Part shown: in pieces, positions 162 to 63,930 of the stretch
How the letters are laid out: every line of letters starts with the position of its first letter
How positions within the stretch are numbered: the first letter of the stretch is position 1
Origin: Solirubrum puertoriconensis
GTDB taxonomy: Bacteria; Bacteroidota; Bacteroidia; Cytophagales; Hymenobacteraceae
Direction: 5' to 3'
DNA: 64,000 nucleotides
Assembly: GCF_001483135.1 (NCBI RefSeq)
Contig: NZ_LNAL01000003.1
Coordinates: 62,001-126,000, forward strand
The notes under the pieces: generated by a model
What the model saw: the letters and a program-made list of their open reading frames with translations, nothing else
What the model was told of the DNA's origin: nothing
Database searches by the model: none
Program-made: the position numbers and the translations under genes

Positions 162-959
162 ATGCAGCTACTCCGCAACCTCAAGCTCACCGACGTTTTC
201 GTGCTCGACATTGAAACCGTGCCCTGTGTAGGTTGCCACGACGAGCTCGATGATATGCTGCGCCACCTGTGGGAGCACAAAGCACAGAGCCTGCGCCGGC
301 AGCAGGGCTTCCCCAGCTGGGGCGCCGAGGAGGTTGAACCCATGCCCGACCGCCTTTCGGCCGCGGCGTTGTTTTCGCAGGCAGGCATCTACGCCGAGTT
401 TGGCCGCGTGGTGTGCATTTCCCTAGGTTGCTTTTATTACGACAAGCAGGAGCAGCTGCGCTTTCGGGTAAAGAGCTTTGCTGCCGACGACGAAGCCACC
501 CTGCTGCGCGAGTTTGCTGAGGTGCTCAGCCGTAAGCCCGGGCATATGTTGTGCGCCCACAACGGCAAAGAGTTCGATTTTCCGTACCTCTCGCGCCGCA
601 TGATGATAAATGGCGTGCTGCTGCCGCCTCAGCTCGACATTGCTGGCAAAAAGCCTTGGGAGGTAAACCACCTCGATACCATGGAGCTGTGGAAATTCGG
701 CGACCGGAAATCGTTTACTTCCCTGGCCCTGCTGGCCGCAATGTTCGGCATTCCAACACCCAAAGACGACATCAACGGTGCCGACGTGGCCCGCGTGTAC
801 TACGAGGAGCGCAACCTACCCCGCATTGTGAAGTATTGCCAGAAGGACATCATCACCACCGCCCGCGTGCTGATGAAGTTTCGGGGCGATGAGCCCTTCG
901 ACGACGAGGCAGTGGTGTATGCCGACCAGCCCGAAATGTCGGTTTTGCGGTTAGCGTAG
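162..959 (+). CDS. Predicted 3'-5' exonuclease, PolB-like (DnaQ/RNase H fold)
   Basis: The 265-residue protein has the three exonuclease motifs of the DEDD superfamily: DIETVP near residue 16 (Exo I), CAHNGKEFDFPYL near 130 (Exo II) and YCQKDIITTAR near 225 (Exo III with Y-x3-D). They match the predicted 3'-5' exonuclease family related to the proofreading domain of family B DNA polymerases; no polymerase domain follows. It should hydrolyse DNA or RNA 3' ends in the cytoplasm using two metal ions. The frame stays open back to base 3, but that stretch crosses a terminator and promoter, so the ATG at 162 is preferred. The gene appears to stand alone between two terminators. Confidence 0.85.
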   Translation: MQLLRNLKLTDVFVLDIETVPCVGCHDELDDMLRHLWEHKAQSLRRQQGFPSWGAEEVEPMPDRLSAAALFSQAGIYAEFGRVVCISLGCFYYDKQEQLRFRVKSFAADDEATLLREFAEVLSRKPGHMLCAHNGKEFDFPYLSRRMMINGVLLPPQLDIAGKKPWEVNHLDTMELWKFGDRKSFTSLALLAAMFGIPTPKDDINGADVARVYYEERNLPRIVKYCQKDIITTARVLMKFRGDEPFDDEAVVYADQPEMSVLRLA

Positions 960-982
960 GCCATATCACAGCTAAGCAAGAA

Positions 983-1008
983 AAAGGCAGCCCCGCGGGG
1001 CTGCCTTT
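983..1008 (+). terminator. Palindromic terminator after the exonuclease gene
   Basis: A perfect 26-base palindrome (AAAGGCAGCCCCG and its complement) starts 23 bases after the stop codon. Its A and T flanks form a symmetrical hairpin. Confidence 0.85.
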
Positions 1009-1105
1009 CATGTTTGTAGCAGGGAATATTGATGTGGATAACTATGTTAATATGTTGATAAATTATTGTATTATTATCTATGGTATAACTCATATCCCCT
1101 AAGTC

Positions 1106-2506: not shown

Positions 2507-3940
2507 TTATACGTTAAGTACGCCTTCCACAATGCCGGGCATTACGCCCAACAGCACCGTAATGGCAATCAGCAGCACCAGCACGGCCGACTGAAAACCG
2601 CCTACTTCAACCGGTGCATTGTCGCCTTCGGGAGCTGAGCGCATGTACATGGCAATGATGGGGCGCAGGTAGTAGTAAATACCTACTGCCGACATTACCA
2701 CCGCAAAAATCACCAGGCCGATATAGCCCTCTTGTGCGGCGGCCGCAAACAGGTAAAACTTACCGAAGAAGCCGCCCGTGAGCGGAATACCAGCCAACGA
2801 CAACATCGCAACCGTCATGGCAAATGATAACAGCGGATTGGTGCGCGCTAGCCCATTCAAACCTTCGTAGTCGTCGCGGCCGCGTTGGTCGTGCACCAGC
2901 TTCAGCACAGCAAAGGCGGCAACCGTAGCCACCGAGTAAGCCAGCGAGTAGAAGAAAATAGCGTTTGACGACAGATTGCCGCTGCGCAGTGCTACCAGCG
3001 CCAGCAGCAAATAGCCAGCGTGCGAAATGCTCGAGTAGGCCAGCATGCGCTTGGCGTTGGTTTGCGCTACAGCGCCTACGTTGCCAATCAGCAGCGTGAG
3101 CACCAGCATAGCCGTGAGCGTGGGCAACCACAGGCTCATGGTGTTGTCGCCGAAGGCAACGAGCAGCAGCTTAAAGAAACCAGCTATGCCGGCTGTCTTC
3201 ACCACCGTGCTCATAAAGCCCGTGAAGATGGTGGGCGCACCTTCGTATACGTCGGGTGTCCAGAAGTGAAAGGGGGCCGCCGAAATCTTAAAGCCAATGC
3301 CAATCAGCATCAGCAGAATGCCGATGTACAGCATGGGGGTTAGCGACGCATCGGCAGTGGGCAGGGCGCGAGCGGCTACTCCCAATTGGTCGAGCGCGAA
3401 AGTTCCGGAAGCACCGTAGATCAGCGCCATGCCAAACAGCAGAATGCCAGTGGCAAAAGAGCCCATCAGGAAGTACTTGAGGGCTGCCTCGTTCGAGCGC
3501 AGGTTGTTCTTATCGGAGCCGGCCAGCACATACATAGCAATGCTGAGGGTTTCGATACCTAGGAAGAGGATGAGCAGGTTGTTGTAGCTCACCATCATGA
3601 TAGCACCTACCAGCGAAAACAGCATTAGGCTATAGTACTCGGCCAGGTTGGGGTTGCCTTCGCGCACGTACTTGTGCGAAAACGGCAGCAACAGCAGCGT
3701 TGTGAGCACCACCACCGCAGTGAATACCTGCGCGTAGCGGTCGAAGATGAGCATGCCGTTGAAGTAGGGCGAGGCATTCCAGGCGGCCAGCGGACCGGTG
3801 GTGTCAATGCCCGAGATGTTCACGGCAAATACCACTGCCAGCACCAGCAGCACTGCTGGCAGCAGCAACCGGTTGGAGCGCAGAAAACCTAGAAACAGGT
3901 TGGCCAGCCCGGAAACAGAAAGCAGAATAATCGAGAGCAT
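2507..3940 (-). CDS. nuoN: NADH-quinone oxidoreductase subunit N
   Basis: A 477-residue, very hydrophobic protein with the proton-antiporter-like fold of NuoL/M/N. Recognisable stretches are the helix around LGIETLSIAMYVLAGSD (conserved Glu), EAALKYFLMGSFATGILL, and the lysine-bearing FKISAAPFHFWTPDVYEGAP. It forms one of the three proton channels in the membrane arm of complex I. It is the last gene of the K-L-x-M-N part of the cluster, starts 12 bases after nuoM, and ends at the terminator at 2452-2481. Length is normal for the family. Confidence 0.97.
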   Translation of the reverse strand: MLSIILLSVSGLANLFLGFLRSNRLLLPAVLLVLAVVFAVNISGIDTTGPLAAWNASPYFNGMLIFDRYAQVFTAVVVLTTLLLLPFSHKYVREGNPNLAEYYSLMLFSLVGAIMMVSYNNLLILFLGIETLSIAMYVLAGSDKNNLRSNEAALKYFLMGSFATGILLFGMALIYGASGTFALDQLGVAARALPTADASLTPMLYIGILLMLIGIGFKISAAPFHFWTPDVYEGAPTIFTGFMSTVVKTAGIAGFFKLLLVAFGDNTMSLWLPTLTAMLVLTLLIGNVGAVAQTNAKRMLAYSSISHAGYLLLALVALRSGNLSSNAIFFYSLAYSVATVAAFAVLKLVHDQRGRDDYEGLNGLARTNPLLSFAMTVAMLSLAGIPLTGGFFGKFYLFAAAAQEGYIGLVIFAVVMSAVGIYYYLRPIIAMYMRSAPEGDNAPVEVGGFQSAVLVLLIAITVLLGVMPGIVEGVLNV

Positions 3941-3952
3941 GAGTCGGGTGGC

Positions 3953-5410
3953 TTAGCGGTTGATTAGCACCAGCAGCTTGTTCACGGCGGGCTCCGAAAT
4001 GTGCAGGAAGGTGCCGGGGAACAGGCCGATCCAGAATACCATCAGGATGAGCGGGACGAGTACGGCTAGCTCAGCGCCAGTTAGGTCGCGAATCACGCTC
4101 GAGAACGACGAATCGGGACCAAGCATTACGCGCTGGAACATACGCAGCAAGTAAACCGCACCAAAGATGATGGTGAGACCAGCTACGGCGCCCAGCCAAG
4201 GGTTGTACTGATACACGCCCATCAGGAGCAGGAATTCGCCCACAAAGCCGTTGGTAAGCGGCAGAGCAACGGTACCCAGCAGGATTACAAGGAAGGTTAC
4301 TGACAGCAGCGGGGTAGCGCGGGTTAGGCCACCTAGCTCGGGAATTTGGCGGGTGCCGGTGCGGCGCTCGATAATGTCAGAGATGAAGAACATGCCTACC
4401 ACGTTTACACCGTGAGCGAGCATCTGCACGGCGGTGCCCTGCAAGCCAACGGCCGTGAGCGAGAACATACCGGCAATCATCAGGCCTACGTGCGAGAGCG
4501 ACGAGAAAGCAATCAGGCGCTTCATGTCACGCTGACGAATGGCGATAAGCGCACCGTAGATGATGCCGATAACGGCCAGAATCATCACCACCCAACTCCA
4601 CTGGCTAACCCCTAGGGGCACGATGGGCAGTACCCAACGCATGGTGCCATAGATACCCATTTTCAGCATAATGCCCGAGAGCAGCATGGTAGCCGGCGTG
4701 GGGCTCTGCTCGTAGGTGTCGGGCTGCCACGAGTGCAGCGGGAAGATGGGCATTTTCACGGCGAAGGCCGAGAACACCAGCAGGAATACCCATGATTGCT
4801 CGGCCGCCGAGAGGCGCAAGTTGTAGAAAGCGGCTAGGTCGGAGCTGCGCACCGCACCATTAGCACCAGTCATGTAGTACAGGTACACAAAGCCGGCCAG
4901 CATCAATAGCGAGCCAACGACGGTGTAGATGAAAAACTTAAGTGTAACCTGCACCCGACGCTCGCCACCCCACACACCGGCGAGGAAGTAGATCGGAATG
5001 AGTGCCACTTCCCAGAAGAAGTAAAACACGAACGCATCCATGGCCACAAACACGCCAATCAGGCCCGTTTGCATGAACAGCACCAAGGCGTAGAACACCG
5101 AGGGGTTCTCGTAATCGTGGCGGAATGAGGCCAGCAGAATCAGCGGCACCAAGAAAGCGGTGAGTAGCACCAGCAACAGGCTCAGGCCATCAATACCGAT
5201 ATGGAAGTTGATGCCAACTGAAGCCAACCAAGGGTAGTTGATTTCGAACTGTGGCTGGGAGTTAACCTGGAACTGGATGGCCATAAATACGGCCAGCGCC
5301 AGTTCGACCAGCGAAGCGCCAAAGGCCAGCGCCCGCGCGGCGTTGCCCCGCACAAAGTGCAGCAGCAGCGCAGCGGCCACGGGCCAGATAAGCAGAAGGG
5401 CAGTCAGCAT
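3953..5410 (-). CDS. nuoM: NADH-quinone oxidoreductase subunit M
   Basis: A 485-residue multi-spanning protein of the antiporter-like NuoM family: FFWEVALIPIYFLAGVWGG carries the conserved membrane Glu, and KMPIFPLHSWQPDTYEQSPT is the NuoM signature. It forms a proton channel of complex I between NuoL and NuoN. Its ATG overlaps the stop codon of the preceding SHOCT gene by one base (TAATG), so the two are very probably translationally coupled. nuoN follows after 12 bases. Confidence 0.97.
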   Translation of the reverse strand: MLTALLLIWPVAAALLLHFVRGNAARALAFGASLVELALAVFMAIQFQVNSQPQFEINYPWLASVGINFHIGIDGLSLLLVLLTAFLVPLILLASFRHDYENPSVFYALVLFMQTGLIGVFVAMDAFVFYFFWEVALIPIYFLAGVWGGERRVQVTLKFFIYTVVGSLLMLAGFVYLYYMTGANGAVRSSDLAAFYNLRLSAAEQSWVFLLVFSAFAVKMPIFPLHSWQPDTYEQSPTPATMLLSGIMLKMGIYGTMRWVLPIVPLGVSQWSWVVMILAVIGIIYGALIAIRQRDMKRLIAFSSLSHVGLMIAGMFSLTAVGLQGTAVQMLAHGVNVVGMFFISDIIERRTGTRQIPELGGLTRATPLLSVTFLVILLGTVALPLTNGFVGEFLLLMGVYQYNPWLGAVAGLTIIFGAVYLLRMFQRVMLGPDSSFSSVIRDLTGAELAVLVPLILMVFWIGLFPGTFLHISEPAVNKLLVLINR

Positions 5411-5763
5411 TAGCTAAGCAGATTGTTCTTTTGACGTTCGAACTCCTCAGAGGTAATTACGCCTTGGTCGCGCAAGTCCCGAAGCTTGGAGAGTTCATCC
5501 GCAACCGAGGTTGCGCCGGTGGCATAAGCAGTAGGTGCGAGACTTGTCTGTCGACGAACCGCTAGGTACAAAGCGATGAACCACCCGATAATTGACCAAC
5601 CTGCTAGCAAATTCACTAAGAGGATGATTAGGAAATCAGGTCGCTTCCGGCCAATGATTGATGGAAGGAAGTAGAGCAGCCCAAGAGGAATAAGGAAGAC
5701 CATTACGAGCAGCAATTCGCCACCGCCCAGGTCACCTAGAAAAAGCAGCAAAGGCTTCATCAT
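5410..5763 (-). CDS. Small membrane protein with C-terminal SHOCT domain, inside the nuo cluster
   Basis: The 117-residue protein has two membrane stretches (about 7-35 and 45-66). The second contains LLVNLLAGWSIIGWFIALYL, which resembles the superinfection-immunity family (PF14373-like). Residues 88-117 (ELSKLRDLRDQGVITSEEFERQKNNLL) are a clear SHOCT domain, a short motif often at protein ends and thought to bind oligomers or target proteins. The gene starts 13 bases after nuoL, and its stop overlaps the nuoM start, so it is co-transcribed with complex I. It is visibly less GC-rich than its neighbours. It is not a known Nuo subunit. A role in assembly or regulation of complex I is possible, but an unrelated passenger is equally consistent with the sequence. 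Confidence 0.85.
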   Translation of the reverse strand: MMKPLLLFLGDLGGGELLLVMVFLIPLGLLYFLPSIIGRKRPDFLIILLVNLLAGWSIIGWFIALYLAVRRQTSLAPTAYATGATSVADELSKLRDLRDQGVITSEEFERQKNNLLS

Positions 5764-5776
5764 GGGCTGCTAAAAA

Positions 5777-7714
5777 TTAGAAGTGGATGAAATTCAGGGC
5801 CAGTACTACCACAATGCCGATTACCATCAGCAGCAGGTAGGTTTCAACGCGGCCGGTTTGCAGATTGCGCAGCAGCTGCGAGCTACCCATTACCAAACGA
5901 CCTAAGCCATTCACGGAGCCATCTACCACGCGCTTTTCCACGCCATCGTGCAGGCCGCGCGAGAGGAACATGGAAGGACGCACGAACAGGGCGTTGTACA
6001 GCTCATCGACGTAGTACTTGTTGTACACCAGGTTTTCGAAGAAGCCGCGTGGCTGGTTCTCCTCGGCCGGGCGGCTGCGGCGAGCCACGTAGAGCACGTA
6101 CGCTAGCACAATGCCCAGCACACCGGCTGCTACCGAGAAGCCAATGAGCATGTACTCGGTAGCGTGGTCGATTTCAGCACCGAAAGCTTCGGGGCTTAGC
6201 TGGCGCGAGTAGTTGAACAATGGCGCCAGGAAATCGGCCAAGTAGCCTTTGCCCAAGAAAAGCGTCGCATTCATAAAACCGCCTACGGCAGCCAGAATGG
6301 CCAGGATGATGAGCGGCAGCGTCATGCTAGCCGGCGACTCGTGCAGGTGGTGCTTCTGCTCCTCGGTACCGCGGAACTCGCCGAAGAAGGTGAGGAACAG
6401 CAGGCGGAACATGTAGAAGGCCGTCAGGAAAGCCGTAAGCAGGCCAATGCCCCACAGCACTTTGTTGTGCTCATAGGCGTGGGCTAGAATCTCATCTTTC
6501 GAGAAGAAGCCCGAGAACGGCGGAATGCCCGAAATAGCCAGGCAGCCGATCAGGAACGTGAGGAAGGTAATCGGCAAAGCCTTGCGCAGGCCGCCCATGC
6601 GGCGGATGTCCTGCTCGTTGCTCATGGCGTGAATCACCGAACCGGCACCTAGGAACATCAGCGCCTTGAAGAAGGCGTGCGTGAGTACGTGGAACAGCGA
6701 CGAGCTGTAGCCCATTACGCCCAGTGCCAGGAACATATAGCCCAGCTGCGAAACGGTGGAGTAGGCCAGTACCTTTTTGATGTCGTTTTGGGCTATGCCG
6801 ATGGTGGCCGCGAACAGCGCCGTGATGGCACCAATCCAAGCTACTACCTCCAGCGTGTCGGGCGACAACGTGTAGAGTACGTTGGAGCGTAGCACCATGT
6901 AAATACCAGCCGTTACCATGGTAGCGGCGTGGATAAGCGCCGAAACCGGCGTGGGGCCGGCCATAGCGTCGGGCAGCCAGGTATAGAGCGGCAGCTGCGC
7001 CGATTTACCCATAGCACCCACGAAGAGCAGCAACGTAATGGCCGTTACTACACCTGCGCCAATCTGCATTTGCGAGGCTTTCTGAAAAACCTCGCCGTAC
7101 TGCACCGAGTCGAAGGTGAAGTAGATCAGGAAGATGCCCAGCAGGAAACCTAGGTCGCCAATGCGGTTGATGATGAATGCCTTCTTGGCGGCGTTGTTGT
7201 AATTGGTGTTCTGATTCCAGAAGCCGATGAGCAGGTAGGAGCAGAGGCCCACGCCTTCCCAGCCAATGAACAGAATCACGAAGTTGGCGCCCATTACCAG
7301 CACCAGCATTGAGAAAACGAACAGGTTAAGGAAGGCGAAGAACTTGCCTACGTTCTCATCGTGGTGCATGTACCCGATGGAGTACACGTGGATGAGGAAG
7401 CCTACGCCGGTAACCAGCAGCAGCATGATGAGGCTGAGTTGGTCGATCTGGTACGCGAATGGGATGCTCAGCGAGCCGACCGAAATCCAGTCGAACAGGT
7501 GCACCACGTAGGGATACTGGAACGTGGTGAACAGGTACACCGAAATCAGGAACGAACCCAGAACGGTGGCGCTGCCGATTAGCCCGGCTACCGTGCCCGA
7601 AAGGCGGCGGTTGAGCAAGCCGTTGATGAGAAAGCCCAAAAACGGCAGCAGCGGAATAAGAATGTAGAGCAGCGGCGAGCCGGTAAAAACGGCGAGAGGC
7701 GCTTGTTCAGCCAT
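5777..7714 (-). CDS. nuoL: NADH-quinone oxidoreductase subunit L
   Basis: At 645 residues this is the largest antiporter-like subunit. VGWEGVGLCSYLLIGFW holds the conserved Glu, and KSAQLPLYTWLPDAMAGPTP is the NuoL signature. The C-terminal part has the extension that forms the long lateral helix of complex I, with a last transmembrane helix (YLLLMVIGIVVVLALNFI). NuoL is the distal proton channel. It follows nuoK after 109 bases and precedes the SHOCT gene. Confidence 0.97.
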   Translation of the reverse strand: MAEQAPLAVFTGSPLLYILIPLLPFLGFLINGLLNRRLSGTVAGLIGSATVLGSFLISVYLFTTFQYPYVVHLFDWISVGSLSIPFAYQIDQLSLIMLLLVTGVGFLIHVYSIGYMHHDENVGKFFAFLNLFVFSMLVLVMGANFVILFIGWEGVGLCSYLLIGFWNQNTNYNNAAKKAFIINRIGDLGFLLGIFLIYFTFDSVQYGEVFQKASQMQIGAGVVTAITLLLFVGAMGKSAQLPLYTWLPDAMAGPTPVSALIHAATMVTAGIYMVLRSNVLYTLSPDTLEVVAWIGAITALFAATIGIAQNDIKKVLAYSTVSQLGYMFLALGVMGYSSSLFHVLTHAFFKALMFLGAGSVIHAMSNEQDIRRMGGLRKALPITFLTFLIGCLAISGIPPFSGFFSKDEILAHAYEHNKVLWGIGLLTAFLTAFYMFRLLFLTFFGEFRGTEEQKHHLHESPASMTLPLIILAILAAVGGFMNATLFLGKGYLADFLAPLFNYSRQLSPEAFGAEIDHATEYMLIGFSVAAGVLGIVLAYVLYVARRSRPAEENQPRGFFENLVYNKYYVDELYNALFVRPSMFLSRGLHDGVEKRVVDGSVNGLGRLVMGSSQLLRNLQTGRVETYLLLMVIGIVVVLALNFIHF

Positions 7715-7823
7715 GAGCGTCGATGTGCTGATGTGCGTTGTTTGCGTGTCGGCCTAGGTAAGCTGGTGCGTAAGTCGCCCAAAGGCAGCTAGCAACCCGC
7801 TTAGTACGAGCCGGCAAAATTGA

Positions 7824-8156
7824 TTACCACTTCAACCGGTCGAGCAGGTTGACGTCGGTGTTCTGAATGTTGCGGTAAATCATCACGATGATGCCCAAGC
7901 CTACTGCAACTTCGGCAGCAGCCACGGCCATGATGAAAAACACAAAAACTTGCCCGTTGGGGTCGGCGCGGTAGGCCGAGAAAGCGGCAAGCAGAACGTT
8001 CACGGCGTTGAGCATCAACTCTACGCACATGAAAATGATGATGGCATTGCGCCGCGTCAGCACGCCCAGCACGCCAATGGCAAACAGGGCAGAAGCAAAG
8101 AATATGTAGTGCTGAAGCGGAATCGTGCGGATGACTTCCGGTATCGTCTGTTCCAT
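7824..8156 (-). CDS. nuoK: NADH-quinone oxidoreductase subunit K
   Basis: A 110-residue protein with three membrane helices. FMCVELMLNAVNVLLAAF and AVAAAEVAVGLGIIVMIYR carry the two buried Glu residues typical of NuoK and its Mrp relatives. It is part of the membrane arm next to NuoJ. Normally nuoK directly follows nuoJ, but here about 1.8 kb with plus-strand genes separates them. nuoK is therefore the first gene of a second transcription unit (K-L-x-M-N), with a candidate promoter at 8215-8222. Confidence 0.97.
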   Translation of the reverse strand: MEQTIPEVIRTIPLQHYIFFASALFAIGVLGVLTRRNAIIIFMCVELMLNAVNVLLAAFSAYRADPNGQVFVFFIMAVAAAEVAVGLGIIVMIYRNIQNTDVNLLDRLKW

Positions 8157-8214
8157 TCAGGACGGGGTAGCGGCAGAAAAAAGATCTACCTCAACGGTAG
8201 GCAGAATTAGCGGG

Positions 8215-8222
8215 CAAAGGTA
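8215..8222 (-). promoter_or_regulatory. Candidate -7 box for nuoK-L-x-M-N
   Basis: On the minus strand these bases read TACCTTTG, an exact TAnnTTTG -7 box, 58 bases upstream of the nuoK ATG. No clear TTTG -33 box lies at the expected distance, only a T-rich stretch. The match supports a separate promoter for the distal half of the nuo genes. Confidence 0.55.
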
Positions 8223-8386
8223 TCCTGAAAATTGGAAAACTCCCGCGGAAAAGTACCTGCAAAGGCAGTTGCATCTGCACTAGTTCGTTGCTGCTGCCGG
8301 GCTGCTGGCATTAGGTGCTGCACGTTCCTGAAAATTTTCTATTCCTGATAAAGTATTTTTCCGGTGCCTGCGTCTTCCCCTTCAGA

Positions 8387-8989
8387 ATGGAACAGGCACT
8401 GACCATACTTCCTACCGCGGCGGCCATGACCGAGCAAAACGACCGGGTGCAAGAGGCCGTGCGGGAGCAGCGCAGCAAGTTGCTCTCGTTCATCCGCCGC
8501 CGCATTCCCGACGAGGCCGACGCCGAAGACGTGCTGCAGGACGTTTTCTATGAGCTCGTGCAGAGCTACCGCCTAGTGAAGCCCGTGGAGCAAATGGCGG
8601 CTTGGCTGTTTCGGGTGGCGCGCAATAAAATCATTGACCGCTACCGTCGGCCCAAGCCTGCTTCGCTCGAAGAAGCCGCTTCGTACCACTCGGCTGCCGA
8701 CTCCGACGAGCCCTTGCTGCTAGCCGATGTGTTGCCCGCCCCCGACGACTCAACGGAAACGGCCATGGCGCGCGAAACCATTATGGAAGCCATTTTGGAT
8801 GCCCTGGAGGAACTGTCACCCGCCCAGCGCCAAGTATTCGTATGGCACGAGTTCGATGGCAAAACATTCAAGCAGATGTCGGAAGAAACCGGCGTGCCGC
8901 TGAAAACCCTGATTTCGCGCAAGCACTACGCGGTGCAGCAACTCCGTACCAAGCTGCAGGCGCTCTACACCGATTTGTTCCTCGACTAA
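8387..8989 (+). CDS. RNA polymerase sigma factor, ECF (sigma-70) family
   Basis: The protein is 200 residues from the ATG at 8387; a second in-frame ATG at 8426 is also possible. Region 2 is seen as DEADAEDVLQDVFYELVQ and AAWLFRVARNKIIDRYRR. Region 4 is LEELSPAQRQVFVWHEF followed by the helix-turn-helix TFKQMSEETGVPLKTLISRK. It lacks regions 1 and 3, as ECF factors do, and should direct RNA polymerase to a small regulon. It is transcribed against the nuo genes and sits between nuoJ and nuoK. The small membrane-protein gene 14 bases downstream is a possible anti-sigma or target gene. The sequence TATTTTTC near 8353 could be its own -7 box. Confidence 0.93.
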   Translation: MEQALTILPTAAAMTEQNDRVQEAVREQRSKLLSFIRRRIPDEADAEDVLQDVFYELVQSYRLVKPVEQMAAWLFRVARNKIIDRYRRPKPASLEEAASYHSAADSDEPLLLADVLPAPDDSTETAMARETIMEAILDALEELSPAQRQVFVWHEFDGKTFKQMSEETGVPLKTLISRKHYAVQQLRTKLQALYTDLFLD

Positions 8990-9003
8990 ACTCCCTCTCC
9001 GAT

Positions 9004-9387
9004 ATGAACCGCAATCTTTGGCTGCTCCGCAGCCTACGCTTTCTGCTCTTCGTGGCCGTGTTCGTGTCGTTGGCCAGCCTTGCCGTAATGGCGCTCTGGA
9101 ACTGGCTAATGCCGGCCATTTTCGGCTTGCCCTTTATCTCGTTCGCGCAGGCCCTAGGTTTGCTGGTACTGAGCAAAATTCTGTTTGGCGGCTTCCGGGG
9201 CGGCCCAGCCGGCGGCTGGAAAGCCCGCGCTCAAGCCCATTGGCGCCAGAATATGGAAGCTCGAATGCAAGGCATGACAGAAGAAGAACGGGAGAAATTC
9301 CGCCAGAAAATGAGCCGTTGTAGCGCTGGTTGGGCCCGAATGGCCGCGCCGGAAGTTCGGCCTAGCCAAACTGCTCAAGCTGACTAA
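9004..9387 (+). CDS. Small membrane protein downstream of the sigma factor
   Basis: The 127-residue protein has an N-terminal hydrophobic pair of helices (about 10-33 and 38-60), then a glycine-rich turn (FGGFRGGPAGGW). A charged helical tail follows, with NMEARMQGMTEEEREKFRQK. It starts 14 bases after the sigma gene and is surely co-transcribed with it. I do not recognise a named family. Many Bacteroidota ECF genes are followed by a small membrane protein of this shape, so a role in controlling the sigma factor is plausible but not shown. Its stop codon lies within the stem of the terminator at 9381-9434. Confidence 0.75.
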   Translation: MNRNLWLLRSLRFLLFVAVFVSLASLAVMALWNWLMPAIFGLPFISFAQALGLLVLSKILFGGFRGGPAGGWKARAQAHWRQNMEARMQGMTEEEREKFRQKMSRCSAGWARMAAPEVRPSQTAQAD

Positions 9388-9434
9388 CACAGCAGCGGCG
9401 CCTGATTCTTCGGGCGCCGCTGCTGTGTTAGTCA
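9381..9434. terminator. Bidirectional terminator whose stem contains both stop codons
   Basis: Two perfect 22-base arms (9381-9402 and 9413-9434) flank a ten-base loop. The plus-strand stop TAA (9385-9387) is in the left arm and the minus-strand stop of the DUF2314 gene (9428-9430) is in the right arm. Confidence 0.85.
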
Positions 9435-9939
9435 AACTTCCATTCAACTGATTTGTCGAACTCCGCTCTTTCTGCTGGAGTCATCCGTTCCTTGATTACT
9501 TTAATTGAGTAGCCGCCGATCAACTTGTTGTTTCGGGTGTAGTTCCAGTCGGCGATAGAATCCTTGTGGATGCTTACTAGCTGGCCGCTTACAACGTTGT
9601 GGATGTATTCGGGCTCGTTGTCGACTTTCCCATGAAGCGAGTCACCCTCTACGGTTAAATCACCTATCCACATGTACTCCCTTTCGCTACCATCAACGAA
9701 GCCATACTTCACGGCGAAGTTGTAGCTGGCGGTACCCCGGCTATTTAGCGCTGTAATAAATTCCTCAACAGTAGCGCGACTTTTCGTTAAGCCTCCAGCA
9801 TCGCTAAGTCATTACGCTCGGCGTTGTACATGAAAGTATCAGCGTTCCAACCCTTCTCTTTATCGAGGCTTACACAACCTGCTAGAAGCGACGCAGCCGC
9901 CCCAAAGACTAAGAGTGTCTTCGGCAGCGGCTGAACCAA
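9428..9939 (-). pseudogene. Frameshifted DUF2314 lipoprotein gene
   Basis: The C-terminal part (9428 to about 9790) reads in one frame: RATVEEFITALNSRG, EYMWIGDLTVEGDS, DSIADWNYTRNNKLIGGY. This is the DUF2314 domain, of unknown function. The N-terminal part continues in another frame from about 9939. It shows a lipoprotein signal (TLLVFGAAASLLAGC), then DKEKGWNADTFMYNAERNDL, and ends at TAA 9787-9789. Joining the two needs one extra base near 9787-9795, so a one-base deletion (or a sequencing error) has split the gene. No ATG is visible for the N-terminal part; TTG at 9937-9939 is the best start. The gene lies directly after nuoJ on the same strand, so nuo read-through could express it. Confidence 0.75.
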
Positions 9940-9956
9940 TATTTGCTTGTTGATTC

Positions 9957-10469
9957 CTAGAAATTCCGCTCCCCGGTTTCGCGTTTGCCGAGCATTACCG
10001 AGCCCACCATAGCCACCAGGAACAGCACCGAAGCTAATTCGAACGGCAGCAGGTATTGCTGATACAGCACCAAACCTAGGCGGTTTACCATGCCAATCTG
10101 CGAGTCGAAGGTAGCGAGGTCAGCACCAGCAGGGTTTACGTTGCGCAGCGCGGCAATCAGCACAAACAGCAGCAAGCCACCGGCAATGGCAGCCGTAATC
10201 TTGGCCAGAGCCGGCTTATTCGGTTCCGTTTCGGCGTTGAGGTTCAGGAACATCACCACGAACAGGAACAGTACCATAATGGCACCTGCGTACACGATGA
10301 TGTTCACGGCTGCCAGAAATTGCGCGTTCAGCAATAGGTAATGACCCGAAATGGCGAAGAACGTCAGGATCAGGAACAGCACTGAGTGAATCGGGTTCTT
10401 GGCAAACACCACACCTAGGGCCGACAGCAGCGCCACAAACGTCAGGAAGTAGAATAAGGAGGTACCCAT
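9957..10469 (-). CDS. nuoJ: NADH-quinone oxidoreductase subunit J
   Basis: A 170-residue membrane protein of the NuoJ family. It has NPIHSVLFLILTFFAISGHY near the start and IIVYAGAIMVLFLFVVMFLN in the third helix, which carries the conserved pi-bulge region. It connects the quinone-binding and pumping parts of complex I. It is the last gene of the nuoA-J unit. A 100-base gap with a hairpin separates it from nuoI, and the broken DUF2314 gene follows it. Confidence 0.96.
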   Translation of the reverse strand: MGTSLFYFLTFVALLSALGVVFAKNPIHSVLFLILTFFAISGHYLLLNAQFLAAVNIIVYAGAIMVLFLFVVMFLNLNAETEPNKPALAKITAAIAGGLLLFVLIAALRNVNPAGADLATFDSQIGMVNRLGLVLYQQYLLPFELASVLFLVAMVGSVMLGKRETGERNF

Positions 10470-10515
10470 GGGGGAGAGGAGGCTCGGGCTTCGGTACTTG
10501 GTAAATAAAGTGCCA

Positions 10516-10553
10516 TGCTGAGCGAAGCTGACCTAGGCCGACTTCGCTCAGCA
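10516..10553. repeat. Intra-operon hairpin between nuoI and nuoJ
   Basis: Twelve-base arms TGCTGAGCGAAG (10516-10527) and CTTCGCTCAGCA (10542-10553) enclose a 14-base loop containing CCTAGG. No T-run follows on the minus strand, so it looks like an RNA structure or a dispersed repeat rather than a terminator. The core CATGCTGAGCG recurs, in inverted orientation, near 42763-42777. Confidence 0.6.
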
Positions 10554-10569
10554 CGGCGTGCTGCAATTG

Positions 10570-11145
10570 TTAGGCTTCGATGCCTGCCATGCGGCGGGCC
10601 AGGGCTTCGGCTTGCTCGGGCGTGAGTTGAATGCCTCGTTTGCTGCGGGCATTTGGGTCAACAGGCTCTACCAAGCGGTCTTTGCCGTAAATGAACTCGT
10701 CGCGCTCAAAGCGCGGCGGCGCCATCTTATCCGCCTGCAGGTAAACAGCTGCTTTGGGGCAAGCCTCTTCGCACAAGCCGCAGAAGATGCAGCGCAGCAT
10801 GTTGATTTCGTAGCTGACAGCGTACTTCTCTTCGCGGTAGAGGTTCTCTTCGCCTTTTTTACGCTCGCCAGCCACCATGGTAATGGCTTCGGCCGGGCAG
10901 GCTACGGCGCACAAGCCGCAGGCGGTGCAACGCTCACGGCCTTGCTCGTCGCGCTTGAGCACGTGCAAGCCGCGGAACGTAGGCGAGAAGGGGCGCTGCT
11001 CCTCCGGGTAACGGATGGTAGCCTTCTTCGAGAAAAAGTGCTTTAGCGTGATGAGCATGCCTTTGGTAACAGCGGGCAGGTATGCCCGCTCCATCAGCGT
11101 CATCGGCTTCTTCTCGATGTGTTTTCTTCTATTGGTCAGTTGCAT
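10570..11145 (-). CDS. nuoI: NADH-quinone oxidoreductase subunit I
   Basis: A 191-residue ferredoxin-like protein with two 4Fe-4S motifs, CTACGLCAVACPAEAI and CIFCGLCEEACPKAAV. It holds clusters N6a and N6b, which pass electrons to NuoB in the peripheral arm of complex I. The N-terminal YLPAVTKGMLITLKHFF is the amphipathic region that contacts the membrane arm. The length is normal. nuoH precedes it by 90 bases. Confidence 0.97.
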   Translation of the reverse strand: MQLTNRRKHIEKKPMTLMERAYLPAVTKGMLITLKHFFSKKATIRYPEEQRPFSPTFRGLHVLKRDEQGRERCTACGLCAVACPAEAITMVAGERKKGEENLYREEKYAVSYEINMLRCIFCGLCEEACPKAAVYLQADKMAPPRFERDEFIYGKDRLVEPVDPNARSKRGIQLTPEQAEALARRMAGIEA

Positions 11146-11235
11146 GTTTGTCGTCGGTAGCGCAGAGTTGTGCTTTGCGTAACGTTGCCTTTCGGAGCGG
11201 CAGTAACGCGCGGTTTGGAGACCCGCGCAGCACTG

Positions 11236-12297
11236 TTATTTGCCAAAGAACAAAATGAAAGCGCCCGTCAGCAGAATGTTCACGATGGCAATAGGGAAGA
11301 GCATAGTCCAGCCCAAACGCATCAGCTGGTCGTAGCGGAAGCGCGGTAGCGTCCAGCGCACCCACATAAAGAAGAAGATAAAGAAGAAGATCTTCGCGAA
11401 CAGCGTGATGGTGCCCAGAATAGTAACAGTGTTGTGCGCGAACAGCTCGCCCTGCGACTTCAGCAGCACATCGTAGAGCAGGTGCTCACCGGGGAAGCTG
11501 AAACCACCGAAGTACAATGTGCTCATCACGGCCGAAGCCACAAATACGTTGATGTACTCGGCAAACAGGTACAGGCCCATCTTCATCGAGGAGTACTCGG
11601 TGTGGTAGCCACCCACCAGCTCGGTTTCGCACTCCGGCAAGTCGAAGGGCGTACGGTTGGTTTCGGCGAATGCGCATACAATAAAGATGATGAAGCCCAA
11701 CGGCTGGTACACAATGTTCCAAAGGCCATTGTACTGTTGCAGCGCAATCTCGCGCAGGCTCAGCGTTCCGGTAACCATCAGGAGGGCAACCAATGCCATA
11801 CCCATAGCCAGTTCGTAGCTAACGGCTTGCGCAGCAGCACGAACAGCACCCAGAAGCGAGAACTTATTGTTTGAAGCCCAGCCGCCAATCATGATGCCGT
11901 AAACGCCCAGCGAGACCACACCGAACACATACAGCATGCCAATGTTAACCTCAATGGCTTGCAAGCGAATTTCGGTGCCGTTGCCAAAGATCAGCGTGTT
12001 GCCGAACGGGATAACCGCCGAAGCCATCAGGGCTGTGGTCATGGCCAAGCAAGGGCCGAACACGAACAGCCACCGGTTGGCACCGCTTGGGAAGAACTCC
12101 TCTTTCGTGAATAGCTTCACAGCGTCGGCTAGCGGCTGTAGCAAGCCGTAGGGGCCAGCACGGTCGGGGCCTACGCGGTCTTGCAAGAAAGCCGCTACCA
12201 CGCGCTCGGCGTAGGTAGAGTAGGTAGCAATCAGCAGCGTAATGCCGAATACCGCCAGAATTACGAGGCCTTGCCAGGCCAGTACGGGTATTTCCAT
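11236..12297 (-). CDS. nuoH: NADH-quinone oxidoreductase subunit H
   Basis: A 353-residue membrane protein, homologue of mitochondrial ND1. Conserved stretches are QDRVGPDRAGPYGLLQPLAD, AETNRTPFDLPECETELVGG and EYSSMKMGLYLFAEY, with the acidic residues of the quinone chamber. It forms the base of the quinone tunnel together with NuoB and NuoD. It starts 11 bases after the nuoG stop. Confidence 0.97.
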   Translation of the reverse strand: MEIPVLAWQGLVILAVFGITLLIATYSTYAERVVAAFLQDRVGPDRAGPYGLLQPLADAVKLFTKEEFFPSGANRWLFVFGPCLAMTTALMASAVIPFGNTLIFGNGTEIRLQAIEVNIGMLYVFGVVSLGVYGIMIGGWASNNKFSLLGAVRAAAQAVSYELAMGMALVALLMVTGTLSLREIALQQYNGLWNIVYQPLGFIIFIVCAFAETNRTPFDLPECETELVGGYHTEYSSMKMGLYLFAEYINVFVASAVMSTLYFGGFSFPGEHLLYDVLLKSQGELFAHNTVTILGTITLFAKIFFFIFFFMWVRWTLPRFRYDQLMRLGWTMLFPIAIVNILLTGAFILFFGK

Positions 12298-12308
12298 GGT
12301 GGACTAGC

Positions 12309-13316
12309 TTAGCGGCCGAGTTTAAGCGGCGGGTTCTGTTCTAGGTCGCGAATGGTGCTTTCCGGCATATCGGCAATTACCTGCGGGTTCACCACCGGCA
12401 GCTCATAGTGGTTGGCCGAAATTACCGACGAACGCTCGATGTGAGTCGGGCCTTCGATTGTCCAGTCGCTGGTTTCTTTTTTCTCGAAGCGGCAGGTGTT
12501 GCAGATCCACTCCTTCACCTCGCCGTACTCATCCTTGCGGGCCGTTACGCGCAGTACGTCTTTGCCTTTGTACCACAGCACCACGTTGCCCGAGCACTTC
12601 GGGTTTTCGCAGTTGCGGTGAGCGTTTACCGGCTTGGTAAACCACACGCGCTGCTTAAAGCGGAAGGTTTTATCGGTGAGGGCGCCTACCGGGCACACGT
12701 CGATAACGTTGCCCGAGAAGTCCTGATCGATGATGTTGTCGATGTACGTGCCGATTTCGGCCGCATCGCCCCGACCTAGGACGCCGTGCACGCGCTGTTC
12801 GGTGAGCTGATCGGCGGTGTACACGCAGCGGTAGCACAGTATGCAGCGCGTCATGTGCAACTGGATGTACGGGCCGATGTCGATCTTCTCGAAGGTGCGG
12901 CGCTCTTCTTCGTAGCGGGTGGTAGCCATACCGTGCTCGAAGGCGAAGTTCTGCAGGTCGCACTCACCGGCTTGATCGCACACGGGGCAATCCAGTGGGT
13001 GGTTGATCAGCAGCATTTCTACAATGCCTTTGCGCACGTCGAGCACCTGCTGGTTTGTGGTGTTCTCTACCACCATGCCATCCTGCACCGTGGTGATGCA
13101 CGAAGGCACCAGTTTGGGCATGGGGCGCGGGTCTTTGGCTGAGCCGGCCGACACCTTCACCAAGCAAGCGCGGCATTTGCCGCCCGTGCCTTTCAGCGGG
13201 GTGTAATAGCACATAGCCGGCGGCACAATGTCGCCCCCGATTTTGCGGGCTGCATTCAGGATAGTGGTACCATCTGGTACTTCTATCTCGATGCCGTCGA
13301 AGGTTATTTTAGCCAT
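12309..13316 (-). CDS. nuoG: NADH-quinone oxidoreductase subunit G, short form with iron-sulfur domains only
   Basis: The 335-residue protein has an N-terminal 2Fe-2S domain (CYYTPLKGTGGKCRACLVKV, then SCITT). A His-Cys3 cluster region follows (HPLDCPVCDQAGECDLQNF), then a 4Fe-4S motif (CILCYRCVYTADQL with CPVGAL). The large molybdopterin-like domain of classical NuoG (about 900 residues in Escherichia coli) is absent. A cysteine-rich C-terminal region (CENPKCSGNVVLW and CNTCRFEKK) may be what remains of the following cluster domain. The short form seems normal for this lineage, as the reading frame and spacing are intact. It passes electrons from NuoF/NuoE towards NuoI. Confidence 0.93.
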   Translation of the reverse strand: MAKITFDGIEIEVPDGTTILNAARKIGGDIVPPAMCYYTPLKGTGGKCRACLVKVSAGSAKDPRPMPKLVPSCITTVQDGMVVENTTNQQVLDVRKGIVEMLLINHPLDCPVCDQAGECDLQNFAFEHGMATTRYEEERRTFEKIDIGPYIQLHMTRCILCYRCVYTADQLTEQRVHGVLGRGDAAEIGTYIDNIIDQDFSGNVIDVCPVGALTDKTFRFKQRVWFTKPVNAHRNCENPKCSGNVVLWYKGKDVLRVTARKDEYGEVKEWICNTCRFEKKETSDWTIEGPTHIERSSVISANHYELPVVNPQVIADMPESTIRDLEQNPPLKLGR

Positions 13317-13364
13317 TTTCAGAACTCCCTAGGTCGGGAGCGAAAAGTCAGTTCAAAAGGAAAG

Positions 13365-14705: not shown

Positions 14706-14723
14706 GACAGTAGTTGCTTCGGA

Positions 14724-15290
14724 TTATTGTTGCGTGTGCTGCAGGCCAGTCTGCTCCCACGGGAGCAACGGGCGGTGCACCATGTTGCGCAGCTCATTGA
14801 GCATGGCATCAACAGCTTCGGGCGAATCGAGCTGCTCGTAGTACTTCTCGCGCACCTGCACGATGGGAGCCGTGCCGCAAGCGGCGAGGCATTCTACCTC
14901 CTTCAGCGTGAATAGGCCGTCGGGCGACGTTTCACCAACCTTCGCGCCGGTAATGCGCTCTAGATTAGCGGTCAATTCGTCGGAGCCGCGCAGCATGCAA
15001 GGGCCCGTGCGGCAAATTTCCAGCACGTGCTTGCCTACCGGCTTGAGGTTGAACATCGTGTAGAACGAGGATACCTCGTACACTTCGATGGGCTTGAGGC
15101 CGAGCGTTTCAGCTACCAGGTCCTGAACCTCGGGGCTAACCCAGCCGCCAAACTCGGCTTGCGCAATGTGCAGCAACGGCAGCAGGGCCGACTTTTTGCG
15201 GTCGTCGGGGTAGTGGGTCAGCAGACGAGCAATTTCAGCCTTAGCGGCTTCCGAAAATTGCGGCTTTACGGGCGCGGTCGTCGATTCCAT
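14724..15290 (-). CDS. nuoE: NADH-quinone oxidoreductase subunit E
   Basis: A 188-residue thioredoxin-like 2Fe-2S protein. The cluster ligands are in CRTGPCMLRG and ECLAACGTAPIVQV (C-x4-C ... C-x3-C), which matches NuoE cluster N1a. An N-terminal helical bundle (KAEIARLLTHYPDDRKKSAL) contacts NuoF. It sits 12 bases after nuoD. Confidence 0.97.
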   Translation of the reverse strand: MESTTAPVKPQFSEAAKAEIARLLTHYPDDRKKSALLPLLHIAQAEFGGWVSPEVQDLVAETLGLKPIEVYEVSSFYTMFNLKPVGKHVLEICRTGPCMLRGSDELTANLERITGAKVGETSPDGLFTLKEVECLAACGTAPIVQVREKYYEQLDSPEAVDAMLNELRNMVHRPLLPWEQTGLQHTQQ

Positions 15291-15302
15291 AAGCAGCGCA
15301 GA

Positions 15303-16565: not shown

Positions 16566-16623
16566 TGATTCGGGGTTCGTGCGGCTGGTCCTGACCTAGG
16601 AAGGGTAGGGGCCGCGGCAGAAA

Positions 16624-17193: not shown

Positions 17194-17213
17194 GTGAGGT
17201 ACTTGGTAGCAAG

Positions 17214-17250: not shown

Positions 17251-17261
17251 TCCTTTACCGA

Positions 17262-40402: not shown

Positions 40403-40430
40403 CAAAACCGCCCTAGGTGGGGCGGTTTTG
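40403..40430. terminator. Terminator after the DUF4394 gene
   Basis: Eleven-base arms (CAAAACCGCCC / GGGCGGTTTTG) enclose six bases. The loop overlaps a CCTAGG (40412-40417). Confidence 0.8.
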
Positions 40431-62185: not shown

Positions 62186-62467
62186 GTAGCAATTGGTGCA
62201 GCTAAGGCAGCGTATTAGCTACGAAGATACTATCCAAACCCGCAGTTTTGCCAATTGCTGCCCGGCAAAAGCATGAATTATAGTTTGTTAAATTATCAAT
62301 TGCCTGCCTTTTGGCTACGCCGGCTAACCCTTTAATATGAGAAAAGCACCATTCAGATAATTGTTCAGCAGAGCTTGATTCAGGCACAGGTAACGCAAAG
62401 TTTGGCTTAAGTGTACTGCAGAACTAGCTCATTACTAAAAGCGGCAACGTAAACGATAGATAGGTGT

Positions 62468-63166
62468 TTATAGTGAAAACCCTATTTTAAATCCGGCCGG
62501 CATATAAAACCCCTGATAGCCGTAATCGAGAAGGCCGGTGCGGTAGCGGCTTTTTGGGAAGGCCGAGGTAAACTGCGTGTTGCGGTAGCCAATGCCTAAG
62601 TAAAAGTCCAAGTACACGCGCCCTAGGTCGAGGGGGCTTTGGTAGCCCAGCACAGCGGTAGCTCCGTAGCGCCGAATGGTTTCGGTGTAGTCGATGGGGC
62701 CGTATTGGTAATACGTCAGGCCATCGTTGGCGAGCAGCTGTTGCCAACCGTTGGCCTTAAACTGCATTTCGAGGCGCTGGTACTGCGGCCCGTAAGCGAG
62801 GTAAAAACCGGCCAGCGCAGCATCGGTGTTCGGAATGAGGTAAGTGCGGTGCAGCAACTCCAAGCCCCAACCGCGCATGCGTTCGTCGGGCTGCACTTCG
62901 TGGTCGGAGGTGAGCTGCGTAACGCGCCCGCGGTACAGCTGCGGCGTAAGGCTAAGGCTGTGCTTGGGGTGCCCAGGCAGCTGCTTTTCGAACTCCAGCT
63001 GGTAGCTGCGGGCCAATGGCTGAAACGCATTTACCTTCAACAAAGCCGTATGTGGCCGAGGCGGTGCCTCCTGTGTTTGGGCTGCCGCGGACATGCTCAG
63101 CAGTAGCAACCCGGCACCTAGGGTATGCCAGCGCACAAGGGTGTGGTGGGTGCGGAGCGGCAGCAT
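62468..63166 (-). CDS. Putative outer-membrane beta-barrel protein
   Basis: A 232-residue protein with a signal peptide (TLGAGLLLLSMSAAAQTQ). Alternating strands such as YQLEFEKQLPGHPKHSLSL, GFYLAYGPQYQRLEMQF, YLDFYLGIGYRNTQF and the end GFYMPAGFKIGFSL suggest a small barrel of eight to ten strands. It is similar in shape to the DUF3575-type proteins, though the family cannot be named with confidence. Its ATG overlaps the stop of the LVIVD lipoprotein gene by one base (TGATG), so the two are coupled. Confidence 0.75.
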   Translation of the reverse strand: MLPLRTHHTLVRWHTLGAGLLLLSMSAAAQTQEAPPRPHTALLKVNAFQPLARSYQLEFEKQLPGHPKHSLSLTPQLYRGRVTQLTSDHEVQPDERMRGWGLELLHRTYLIPNTDAALAGFYLAYGPQYQRLEMQFKANGWQQLLANDGLTYYQYGPIDYTETIRRYGATAVLGYQSPLDLGRVYLDFYLGIGYRNTQFTSAFPKSRYRTGLLDYGYQGFYMPAGFKIGFSL

Positions 63167-63930
63167 CAGGGGCGGGCAATGGGCAGCATGCTGAGCTGCG
63201 TGAGGGTGTTGCTGCCGCGGCGGTATTGGTACAACCCATCGGCCCCGATTACCAGCAACAGATCTTGGTTCGGAATGACATCAAATGCCTCGATGCGGTG
63301 GTGCTCGCGCTGCGTGAGCGTGGGCGAGCGGCGAATGTCGAACACCTTCAGGCCATCGTCGCACACGTACAGCTGCGTGGAGTCGGCACCTAGGCCGTAG
63401 GGCTTGGCCATGGGGTACACTTGCGCCAAGCGCGGCTGCTGCAAGTTCTGCAAATCAACTACCTGCAGCTGATTGACACCGCCGCCGCAGGTGCGCCCCT
63501 GCCGCAGAGTAAGGTAGGCGTAGCGTCCCTGCACCACCACTGGGTCGCAGCTTACTACGTGCTGAAAATAGCTGAGCTGCCTGGGATTTTGCGGGTTGCT
63601 GGCATCGAAAATGAACATGCCCTGCTGCGTGCCGATAAACAGGTAAGGCTCTTTCGGGAAGATGGTTTCGATGCCCACGCCTAAGTTGGTAACGCGCACG
63701 GCAGCCGCATTGGTGGGGCTGCTGAGGTCGAACACGCGCAGGCTTTGGTCGTCGACGGTGTAGAGCGTGTTGCCCATGATGGCAAAGCGCGCCATCGAGC
63801 CGCCCTGGCCAACGTCGGCGCCTTTGGGGCTGCTGTCGAACGAATCAGAGGAGCAGCCAGCTAGGCCCACGAGCAGGCCGAACAGCAACGTGCCTAGGTA
63901 GCCAAAACGGACAAAGTAGGAGTTCGGCAT
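63166..63930 (-). CDS. LVIVD-repeat lipoprotein
   Basis: A 254-residue protein with a lipobox (GLLVGLAGCSSDSFDSS). LVIVD-type propeller repeats follow: MGNTLYTVDDQSLRVFDLSS, YLFIGTQQGMFIFDASNPQN, YAYLTLRQGRTCGGG with QLQVVDLQNLQQPRLAQ, and LYVCDDGLKVFDIRR. Such repeats form a beta-propeller on the cell surface. The gene starts four bases after the stop of the partial gene to its right and its stop overlaps the barrel gene, so three genes form one operon. Confidence 0.88.
   Translation of the reverse strand: MPNSYFVRFGYLGTLLFGLLVGLAGCSSDSFDSSPKGADVGQGGSMARFAIMGNTLYTVDDQSLRVFDLSSPTNAAAVRVTNLGVGIETIFPKEPYLFIGTQQGMFIFDASNPQNPRQLSYFQHVVSCDPVVVQGRYAYLTLRQGRTCGGGVNQLQVVDLQNLQQPRLAQVYPMAKPYGLGADSTQLYVCDDGLKVFDIRRSPTLTQREHHRIEAFDVIPNQDLLLVIGADGLYQYRRGSNTLTQLSMLPIARP

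What the first reader, a model, noticed from the sequence alone, without database searches (positions are those of the whole stretch)
422..63898. CCTAGG is a highly iterated palindrome throughout the window
Reading the whole window I counted about 88 CCTAGG sites, one per about 730 bases. GCTAGC, with the same base composition, occurs only about 18 times, and ACTAGT and TCTAGA only a few times. CTAG-containing words are usually rare in bacteria. At the observed composition I estimate about 20 sites by chance. Inside genes it is read mostly as Leu-Gly with a CTA codon. About a quarter of the sites lie between genes or across stop codons, although such bases are only about a tenth of the window. 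This resembles the HIP1 palindrome of cyanobacteria in behaviour. A methylation target, a chromosome-organising or uptake-like signal, or a mutational bias are all possible.
Basis: partly seen in the sequence, partly recalled or inferred. Interest (0 to 1): 0.8.

Follow-up and report, generated by a model that had tools for sequence, protein, structure and literature searches.

The report
Species-specific genome watermark in Hymenobacter relatives
This bacterium carries thousands of copies of one seven-letter DNA word (ACCTAGG), which its genome still gains faster and loses more slowly than expected, while close relatives carry a different word or none, and none of the DNA-methylating enzymes that were looked for explains it.

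Summary
In detail: 88 CCTAGG in the window, 6,212 in the genome, one per 773 bases. It survives the codon-usage control: 251 observed against 31 +/- 6 after synonymous-codon shuffling of 184 kb. The organism belongs to Hymenobacteraceae. CCTAGG is patchy there: 9 of 200 family genomes hold more than 5,000, 4 hold 1,209-2,331, the other 187 at most 888.

The functional unit is not the palindrome but the heptamer ACCTAGG: without an A or T flank the effect nearly vanishes. Substitutions among three close genomes show a fixation bias, gains about 7 times up and losses about 4 times down. Related species carry other words (CCCTAGG, GGCTAGC, ACCTAGC, TGGCCTA, CTACCCC; AAGTACC and AAGTATAA in other Cytophagales), and one pair of sister species differs.

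Six DNA-methyltransferase queries do not track the word. The window's genome has one hit, on a plasmid-like contig.

Best reading: a species-specific watermark kept by sequence-biased DNA exchange or repair, resembling uptake-sequence dialects. The bias is shown; the agent is not.

The parts
422..63898 (.). 88 dispersed CCTAGG sites, 79 of them within ACCTAGG on one strand or the other
   Evidence: (all positions listed there); genome-wide 6,212; codon-shuffle control
31657..31726 (.). two sites (31657, 31721) facing each other as an inverted repeat in one intergenic gap; a pair in a similar setting is in G407 (stretch positions 34397/34460); G398 has a close pair at 37082/37123
   Evidence: read by eye
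40412..40417 (.). site inside a terminator-like hairpin between 40237 and 40452
   Evidence: read by eye, not scored
13328..13333 (.). intergenic site; the same flanking sequence carries it in G407 and G398
2507..17819 (-). block of mostly minus-strand ORFs that also carries sites (contains the NADH:quinone oxidoreductase chain-5 type ORF 5777-7714)
   Evidence: naming the block the nuo operon is recalled, only 5777-7714 in it was scanned
32568..35183 (-). ClpC-type gene used as anchor to find the same region in relatives

Best explanation
ACCTAGG (read on either strand; its core is CCTAGG) is a species-specific genome watermark. At sites one change away from the word, the genome preferentially fixes the change that makes it and resists the change that breaks it. 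This acts at the DNA level, in genes where it is mostly synonymous and more densely between genes. Neighbouring species run the same process with other words, most of them built round CTA or GTA. The most likely cause is a sequence-specific step in DNA exchange or repair (preferential uptake and recombination of word-bearing DNA, as with uptake sequences, or word-specific biased repair) whose specificity changes between species. Shown: the excess, the heptamer unit, the two-sided substitution bias, the patchiness, the word switching. Inferred: that exchange or repair, rather than plain selection for a binding site, supplies the bias. The two-sided bias itself was measured only in the window's clade; for the other words only the excess was measured. 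No protein has been identified.
For: Codon-controlled excess. Two-sided bias in the terminal branches of G000 and G407: Leu CTG to CTA 9 of 36 in C_GG context against 96 of 2,627 elsewhere (Fisher p 6e-6; x_GG, 11 of 92, left out of the control); CTA to CTG 8 of 173 against 11 of 63 (p 0.005; x_GG, 1 of 5, left out). Several precursors (CCTGGG and CCTCGG mainly) lead to the word. Heptamer unit: CTA share 0.71-0.83 with one A/T flank, 0.15 without. Different words in related species, near-diagonal in a cross table; sister species G449 and G422 differ at full support. No preference between the two genome strands (107/125, 143/116, 131/129), which speaks against Chi- or KOPS-like marks; densest between convergent genes (47 per 10 kb; tandem 31; divergent 22; convergent against divergent p 0.002), as recalled for uptake sequences. 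ComEC in 24 of 24 genomes, necessary but not discriminating.
Against: No uptake receptor, nuclease or repair protein was found to track the word, and apart from ComEC none was searched for. Transformation of Hymenobacter is not documented in any call here. The same word recurs in separate clades (CTACCCC, GCTAGCC), which fits a movable specificity gene better than a slowly drifting receptor. A stretch of a large Hymenobacter plasmid carries a strong CCCTACC word, so the process also reaches plasmid DNA. Inside genes the heptamer is read more often from the template strand (299 against 214), perhaps only because the Gly codon GGT can supply the T. Two strong words lack CTA/GTA (G426 AATCAGC z 9.5; Larkinella AAAACCG z 8.5). 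The substitution counts are small (9 gains, 8 losses).
Confidence: 0.45

Rival explanations
1. Methylation-coupled HIP as proposed by Elhai: an orphan methyltransferase marks the word and methyl-directed mismatch repair ratchets near-misses into it.
For: Same phenomenology as HIP1 and alternate HIPs; section 2.5.3 of PMC4390886 says that all cyanobacterial genomes with highly over-represented sequences have a putative methyltransferase able to modify them (abstract, section 2.5.3 and part 1 of section 3.4 read; section 3.4 also mentions HIP1-rich genomes without a CGATCG methyltransferase). Recurrence of one word in separate clades would fit transfer of such a gene.
Against: G000: no PF00145, PF02384, PF02086, PF07669 or MmeI-like hit; its one PF01555 hit lies on a 12.5-kb plasmid-like contig. 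G407 has no PF00145, PF01555 or PF02086 hit. The MmeI-like enzyme is full-length in CCTAGG-poor G411 and G426 and not found in word-bearing G000, G470, G569, G575. CTA to TTA, a C-to-T change within the word, is 8 of 173 against 3 of 63 elsewhere (p 1.0), so no 5-methylcytosine footprint there.
Confidence: 0.17
2. Weak direct selection for thousands of binding sites of a chromosome-wide protein (nucleoid, segregation or repair loading).
For: Selection is formally the same as the two-sided bias seen. Sites are dispersed.
Against: Sister species use different words, and 39 of 56 genomes in the ClpC tree have no assigned word, so no conserved essential function. Spacing is not regular (CV 0.80-0.93). 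No preference between genome strands.
Confidence: 0.23
3. A pure context-dependent mutation bias (hot spot) makes CCTAGG.
For: Gains are strongly context dependent (16.8% CTG to CTA in CCTGGG against 1.3-2.3% in other contexts).
Against: Losses are suppressed in the same context (8 of 173 against 11 of 63). Both transitions and transversions feed the word (CCTCGG to CCTAGG 25 of 200, to CCTGGG 6, to CCTTGG 1). CCTTGG, however, rarely becomes the word (1 of 115).
Confidence: 0.08
4. An accident of codon usage, amino-acid pairs or tetranucleotide composition.
For: Most coding sites are Leu-Gly with CTA (57 of 63).
Against: 251 against 31 after synonymous-codon shuffling. Intergenic density is 3.6 times the coding density. 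CTA share is 0.57 in C_GG against 0.083 overall.
Confidence: 0.01

Closest known systems
HIP1 (GCGATCGC) and alternate HIPs of cyanobacteria (PMC4390886)
   Same: Dispersed short word at about one per kb, far above expectation, replaced by another word in some relatives.
   Different: Different phylum and words; functional unit is a non-palindromic heptamer; no cognate methyltransferase among the six queries; one sister pair differs in its word.
DNA uptake sequence dialects of Neisseriaceae (PMC3630211, passages)
   Same: Species-specific words with a short shared core (CTG there; CTA/GTA in most words here); thousands of copies; preference for gene 3' ends (recalled for Neisseria, measured here).
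   Different: Shorter words; no receptor known; competence not tested; the words do not simply follow the tree.
Uptake signal sequences of Pasteurellaceae (recalled; modelled in PMC1939737)
   Same: Expected fixation bias from recombination with word-bearing DNA (recalled).
   Different: No relation of sequence or machinery looked for. PMC1939737 names CCTAGG only as a restriction site inside another over-represented octamer (passage read).
Chi and KOPS sites (recalled)
   Same: Iterated species-specific marks.
   Different: Those are strand-biased (recalled); ACCTAGG shows no preference between genome strands.

Membership tests
HIP (highly iterated palindrome, Elhai 2015) | short GC-rich palindrome far above expectation at about one per kb | tested here: met
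   but the functional unit is ACCTAGG, not palindromic
HIP (highly iterated palindrome, Elhai 2015) | a methyltransferase able to modify the word is present in the genome | tested here: not met
   six family or protein queries; G000 has one hit, on a plasmid-like contig; G407 none of PF00145/PF01555/PF02086; nothing shared by G000, G407, G398; untested families remain
HIP (highly iterated palindrome, Elhai 2015) | replacement by another word in related genomes | tested here: met
DNA uptake sequence / uptake signal sequence | iterated word maintained by a fixation bias | tested here: met
   (window's clade only)
DNA uptake sequence / uptake signal sequence | dialects with a shared short core among relatives | tested here: met
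   16 of the 17 stretches with z of 9 or more have CTA or GTA (either strand) in the top word; exceptions G426, and Larkinella at z 8.5; shared ancestry makes these not independent, and the core was noticed after the fact
DNA uptake sequence / uptake signal sequence | preference for gene 3' ends | tested here: met
   gaps of up to 600 bp: convergent 46 in 9,708 bp, tandem 122 in 38,679 bp, divergent 25 in 11,480 bp
DNA uptake sequence / uptake signal sequence | word-bearing DNA is taken up preferentially | not testable with these tools
   needs a transformation experiment
DNA uptake sequence / uptake signal sequence | DNA channel ComEC present | tested here: met
   24 of 24 genomes, word-free ones too, so not discriminating
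Chi / KOPS | orientation bias along the chromosome | tested here: not met
   +/- counts 107/125, 143/116, 131/129 in one 184-195 kb region of three genomes

The most novel reading that the evidence does not exclude
Cytophagales carry an undescribed system in which a movable, sequence-specific but methyltransferase-free agent rewrites whole genomes toward a species-specific word, with sister species switching words. It would be either the first DNA-uptake dialect system known in Bacteroidota or a new kind of word-directed repair drive, acting as a barrier to gene exchange between species.
Probability: 0.4. Interest if true: 0.92.

Novelty: new variant of a known kind. Interest (0 to 1): 0.78.

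Why it matters
The function of HIP-type words has been open since the 1990s (recalled). Here related species differ in the word and many show none, and the genomes of the window's clade share no methyltransferase among those searched. Gain and loss can be measured, and a gene-presence association over the 200 or more sequenced family members should point to the responsible protein. If it is an uptake dialect, it would also show how species of this group keep their gene pools apart.

Tried and rejected
Methyltransferases: PF00145, PF01555 (40 genomes each), PF02384, PF02086, PF07669 (24 each) and an MmeI-like enzyme found in G407 (60 genomes); none tracks the word. The MmeI lead looked good because such enzymes read words ending in AG or AC (recalled) and because it is widespread, but no match at the limit used was found in G000, G470, G569, G575, G553, G563 and G443.

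16S rRNA: two CCTAGG in helix-32 position (helix number recalled) looked like rRNA being rewritten, but Hymenobacter volaticus, H. tibetensis and Rufibacter tibetensis have the same letters, with CCTGGG/CCCAGG in Persicobacter, so it is older than the word and is not counted.

A first conservation test suggested CCTAGG was less conserved than other CTA; the control mixed reading frames and branches, and the in-frame version replaced it. In one search the third genome, G398, can mix its own losses with gains on the stem of the other two: there CTA to CTG is 18 of 100 in C_GG against 27 of 58 elsewhere, and CTG to CTA 3 of 12 against 31 of 1,232. The apparent avoidance of ACCTAGGT is explained by GGT being rare unless recruited: both flanks 13 of 22.

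Mobile DNA: chromosome stretches aligned to neither relative have 7.6, 12.8 and 15.0 sites per 10 kb against 14.4, 13.7 and 12.6 in shared stretches, so no consistent depletion. Only the 12.5-kb plasmid-like contig is poor (2 sites, 17 expected). Tandem-repeat words (L263, L211, L275) were set aside by a dispersal filter.

Of the 60 genomes searched for ClpC, 59 had a match; ClpC stretches were taken from 56, all used in the tree. Word labels on that tree are mine; weak words (G426, G574) count as none. mCCTAGG is a one-origin group with weak support (87/23), and seven rows are flagged for composition.

Literature: nine searches. CCTAGG with Hymenobacter gave 0 papers, Hymenobacter with methylome 0, Bacteroidetes with DNA uptake sequence and overrepresented 0. 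The library is open-access only. I read the abstract, section 2.5.3 and part 1 of section 3.4 of PMC4390886, and passages of PMC1939737 and PMC3630211; the rest were seen in listings only.

Full report
Where the window is. The window is bases 62,001-126,000 of contig 3 of a 4.80-Mb genome that is 99.9% complete in 8 contigs. Its 16S gene is 91% identical to copies in Hymenobacter volaticus and H. tibetensis records. So the family is Hymenobacteraceae. The genus of the window (g1 in the tools) is not the genus g2 that holds those two.

The count. The genome has 6,212, one per 773 bases. Order-0, order-1 and order-3 expectations are 14-20 for the window. The order-4 expectation of 66 is inflated by the word itself. 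The fair control keeps every protein and the overall codon usage and shuffles synonymous codons: 251 observed, 31.1 +/- 6.1 expected in 184 kb, and similar in two relatives (277 against 33.1; 271 against 30.8). Coding sites are mostly C CTA GG (57 of 63), and density between genes is 39 per 10 kb against 10.9 inside (my own simple ORF calls).

Patchiness. Among 395 genomes drawn from the phylum, few of them from this family, no other exceeds 734. Among 200 genomes of the family, 9 have more than 5,000 (G000, G398, G407, G449, G470, G528, G569, G571, G575), 4 have 1,209-2,331 (G553, G554, G562, G563) and 187 have at most 888. Of the 8 genomes drawn from the window's genus 3 are rich and form one clade (100/100 support, ClpC tree).

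The unit is a heptamer. In the rich clade 90% of sites have A on one side; in the window 79 of 88. Among Leu codons in C_GG context, CTA makes up 37 of 253 when neither an A precedes nor a T follows, 160 of 225 with the A, 243 of 294 with the T, and 13 of 22 with both; over all Leu codons it is 0.083. So one A flank on either strand suffices, and the palindrome is only the core. In word-poor genomes of the genus CTA is 8 of 225 in C_GG.

A fixation bias. From word-poor relatives, CCTGGG has become CCTAGG in 24 of 143 aligned cases against 6 of 265, 7 of 391 and 57 of 4,303 for CTG to CTA in other contexts; CCTCGG has become CCTAGG in 25 of 200, CCTGGG in 6 and CCTTGG in 1 (pairs of genomes there are not independent). 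Among the three rich genomes, with two agreeing and the third (G000 or G407) scored, in-frame CTG became CTA in 9 of 36 C_GG cases against 96 of 2,627 elsewhere (p 6e-6), and CTA became CTG in 8 of 173 against 11 of 63 (p 0.005); x_GG cases, 11 of 92 and 1 of 5, are left out. Gains about 7 times up and losses about 4 times down multiply to about 26, close to the 31-fold odds in codon usage of G000 and G407 (18-fold in G398; from the shares). This is the signature of selection or of biased conversion, not of a mutation hot spot alone. C-to-T change inside the word is not raised (8 of 173 against 3 of 63).

Other species, other words. A blind scan of 141 Bacteroidota stretches for dispersed 7-mers against codon shuffles (largest null z 5.6) gives 17 with z of 9 or more. 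They are ACCTAGG (G000, G407, G398, G528, G575), ACCTAGC/AGCTAGG (G470, G571, G569), CTACCCC (G443), CTAGCCC (G427), TAGGCCA/CTAGGCC (G562, G553, G554, G563), AGTATAA (Pontibacter sp., L198), AAAGTAC (Rhabdobacter roseus, L224), and one without CTA/GTA (AATCAGC, G426). Between z 5.6 and 9 many stretches show codon-pair-like words, so I do not count that range as such, although G449 (8.8), G422 (6.9) and G514 (6.8) lie in it. Targeted shuffles of words chosen from the scan confirm GGCTAGC in G422 (107 against 14.6), CCCTAGG in G449 (58 against 5.6) and CTACCCC in G514 (21 against 4.4); the words of G449 and G422 are at or near background in the other (5 against 4.7; 25 against 14.0), and these two are sisters. 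On the ClpC tree of 56 genes the words need 10 changes (minimum 7), and CTACCCC and GCTAGCC each need two. Weak excesses of a neighbour's word (CTACCCC in G449 and G574, z 4.5 and 4.3; GGCTAGC in G443, z 4.9) may be fossils of earlier words; this is only a hint. A 30-kb stretch of a 190-kb plasmid of Hymenobacter sp. NBH84 carries CCCTACC at 41 against 6.8; the other 6 of 7 plasmid stretches have no word above z 6.5.

No methyltransferase fits. Of six queries G000 has one hit, a PF01555 enzyme on a 12.5-kb contig with Rep3 and TraG/TraD-type genes and only 2 CCTAGG where 17 are expected. G407 has one PF02384 hit and the MmeI-like enzyme, which also gives its sub-cut-off PF07669 hit. Nothing among these is shared by G000, G407 and G398. 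Other families and withheld stretches (contig 1 of G000 has no readable base) remain untested. Section 2.5.3 of PMC4390886 says that all cyanobacterial genomes with highly over-represented sequences have a putative methyltransferase able to modify them, though section 3.4 mentions HIP1-rich genomes without a CGATCG enzyme.

Reading. Between the two genome strands the sites show no preference, inside genes a mild one (299 template, 214 coding), and they are densest between convergent genes. Most words share CTA or GTA, which recalls uptake-sequence dialects with their CTG core (PMC3630211, passages). ComEC is in all 24 genomes searched. Recurrence of one word in separate clades and its presence on a plasmid fit a movable specificity factor or a process acting on all resident DNA. 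I therefore put a sequence-biased exchange or repair process first (0.45 together), direct selection for a binding site next, and the methylation model third.

Noticed in passing
G-handles of genus g2, control column: GGATCC is almost absent from many 5-6 Mb genomes of genus g2 (for example 0 in G502, 1 in G462, G484, G492, G500), strong avoidance of one palindrome in the same genus that over-uses others.
   Followed up: no
L194 (G000 contig 4), 1-12518: Plasmid-like contig with a Rep3 initiator, a TraG/TraD-type coupling protein, DUF5712 and the genome's only PF01555 methyltransferase hit; nearly free of CCTAGG.
   Followed up: partly
L280:898-4458 (G407): MmeI-like restriction-modification protein of 1,186 aa; it or a relative gives a match in 37 of 60 family genomes (some only weak partial matches), none in the window's genome.
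   Followed up: yes
L224 (Rhabdobacter roseus) and L198 (Pontibacter sp.): Very strong dispersed words AAGTACC (57 in 22.6 kb) and AAGTATAA (30 in 22.6 kb) outside Hymenobacter.
   Followed up: partly
stretches G426 and L214 (Larkinella sp. C7): Iterated words AATCAGC and AAAACCG without a CTA/GTA core, possibly a different kind.
   Followed up: no
stretches: CCTAGG-rich genomes of g1 have lower G+C than poor ones (58-61% against 62-65%), and G449 (51%) less than its sister G422 (61%). It is not general: G387, the nearest word-free relative of G470 and G571 (53-54%), also has 54%.
   Followed up: partly
NZ_CP043645.1 30001-60000 (L316): Hymenobacter sp. NBH84 plasmid carrying the CCCTACC word at 41 copies in 30 kb.
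   Followed up: partly
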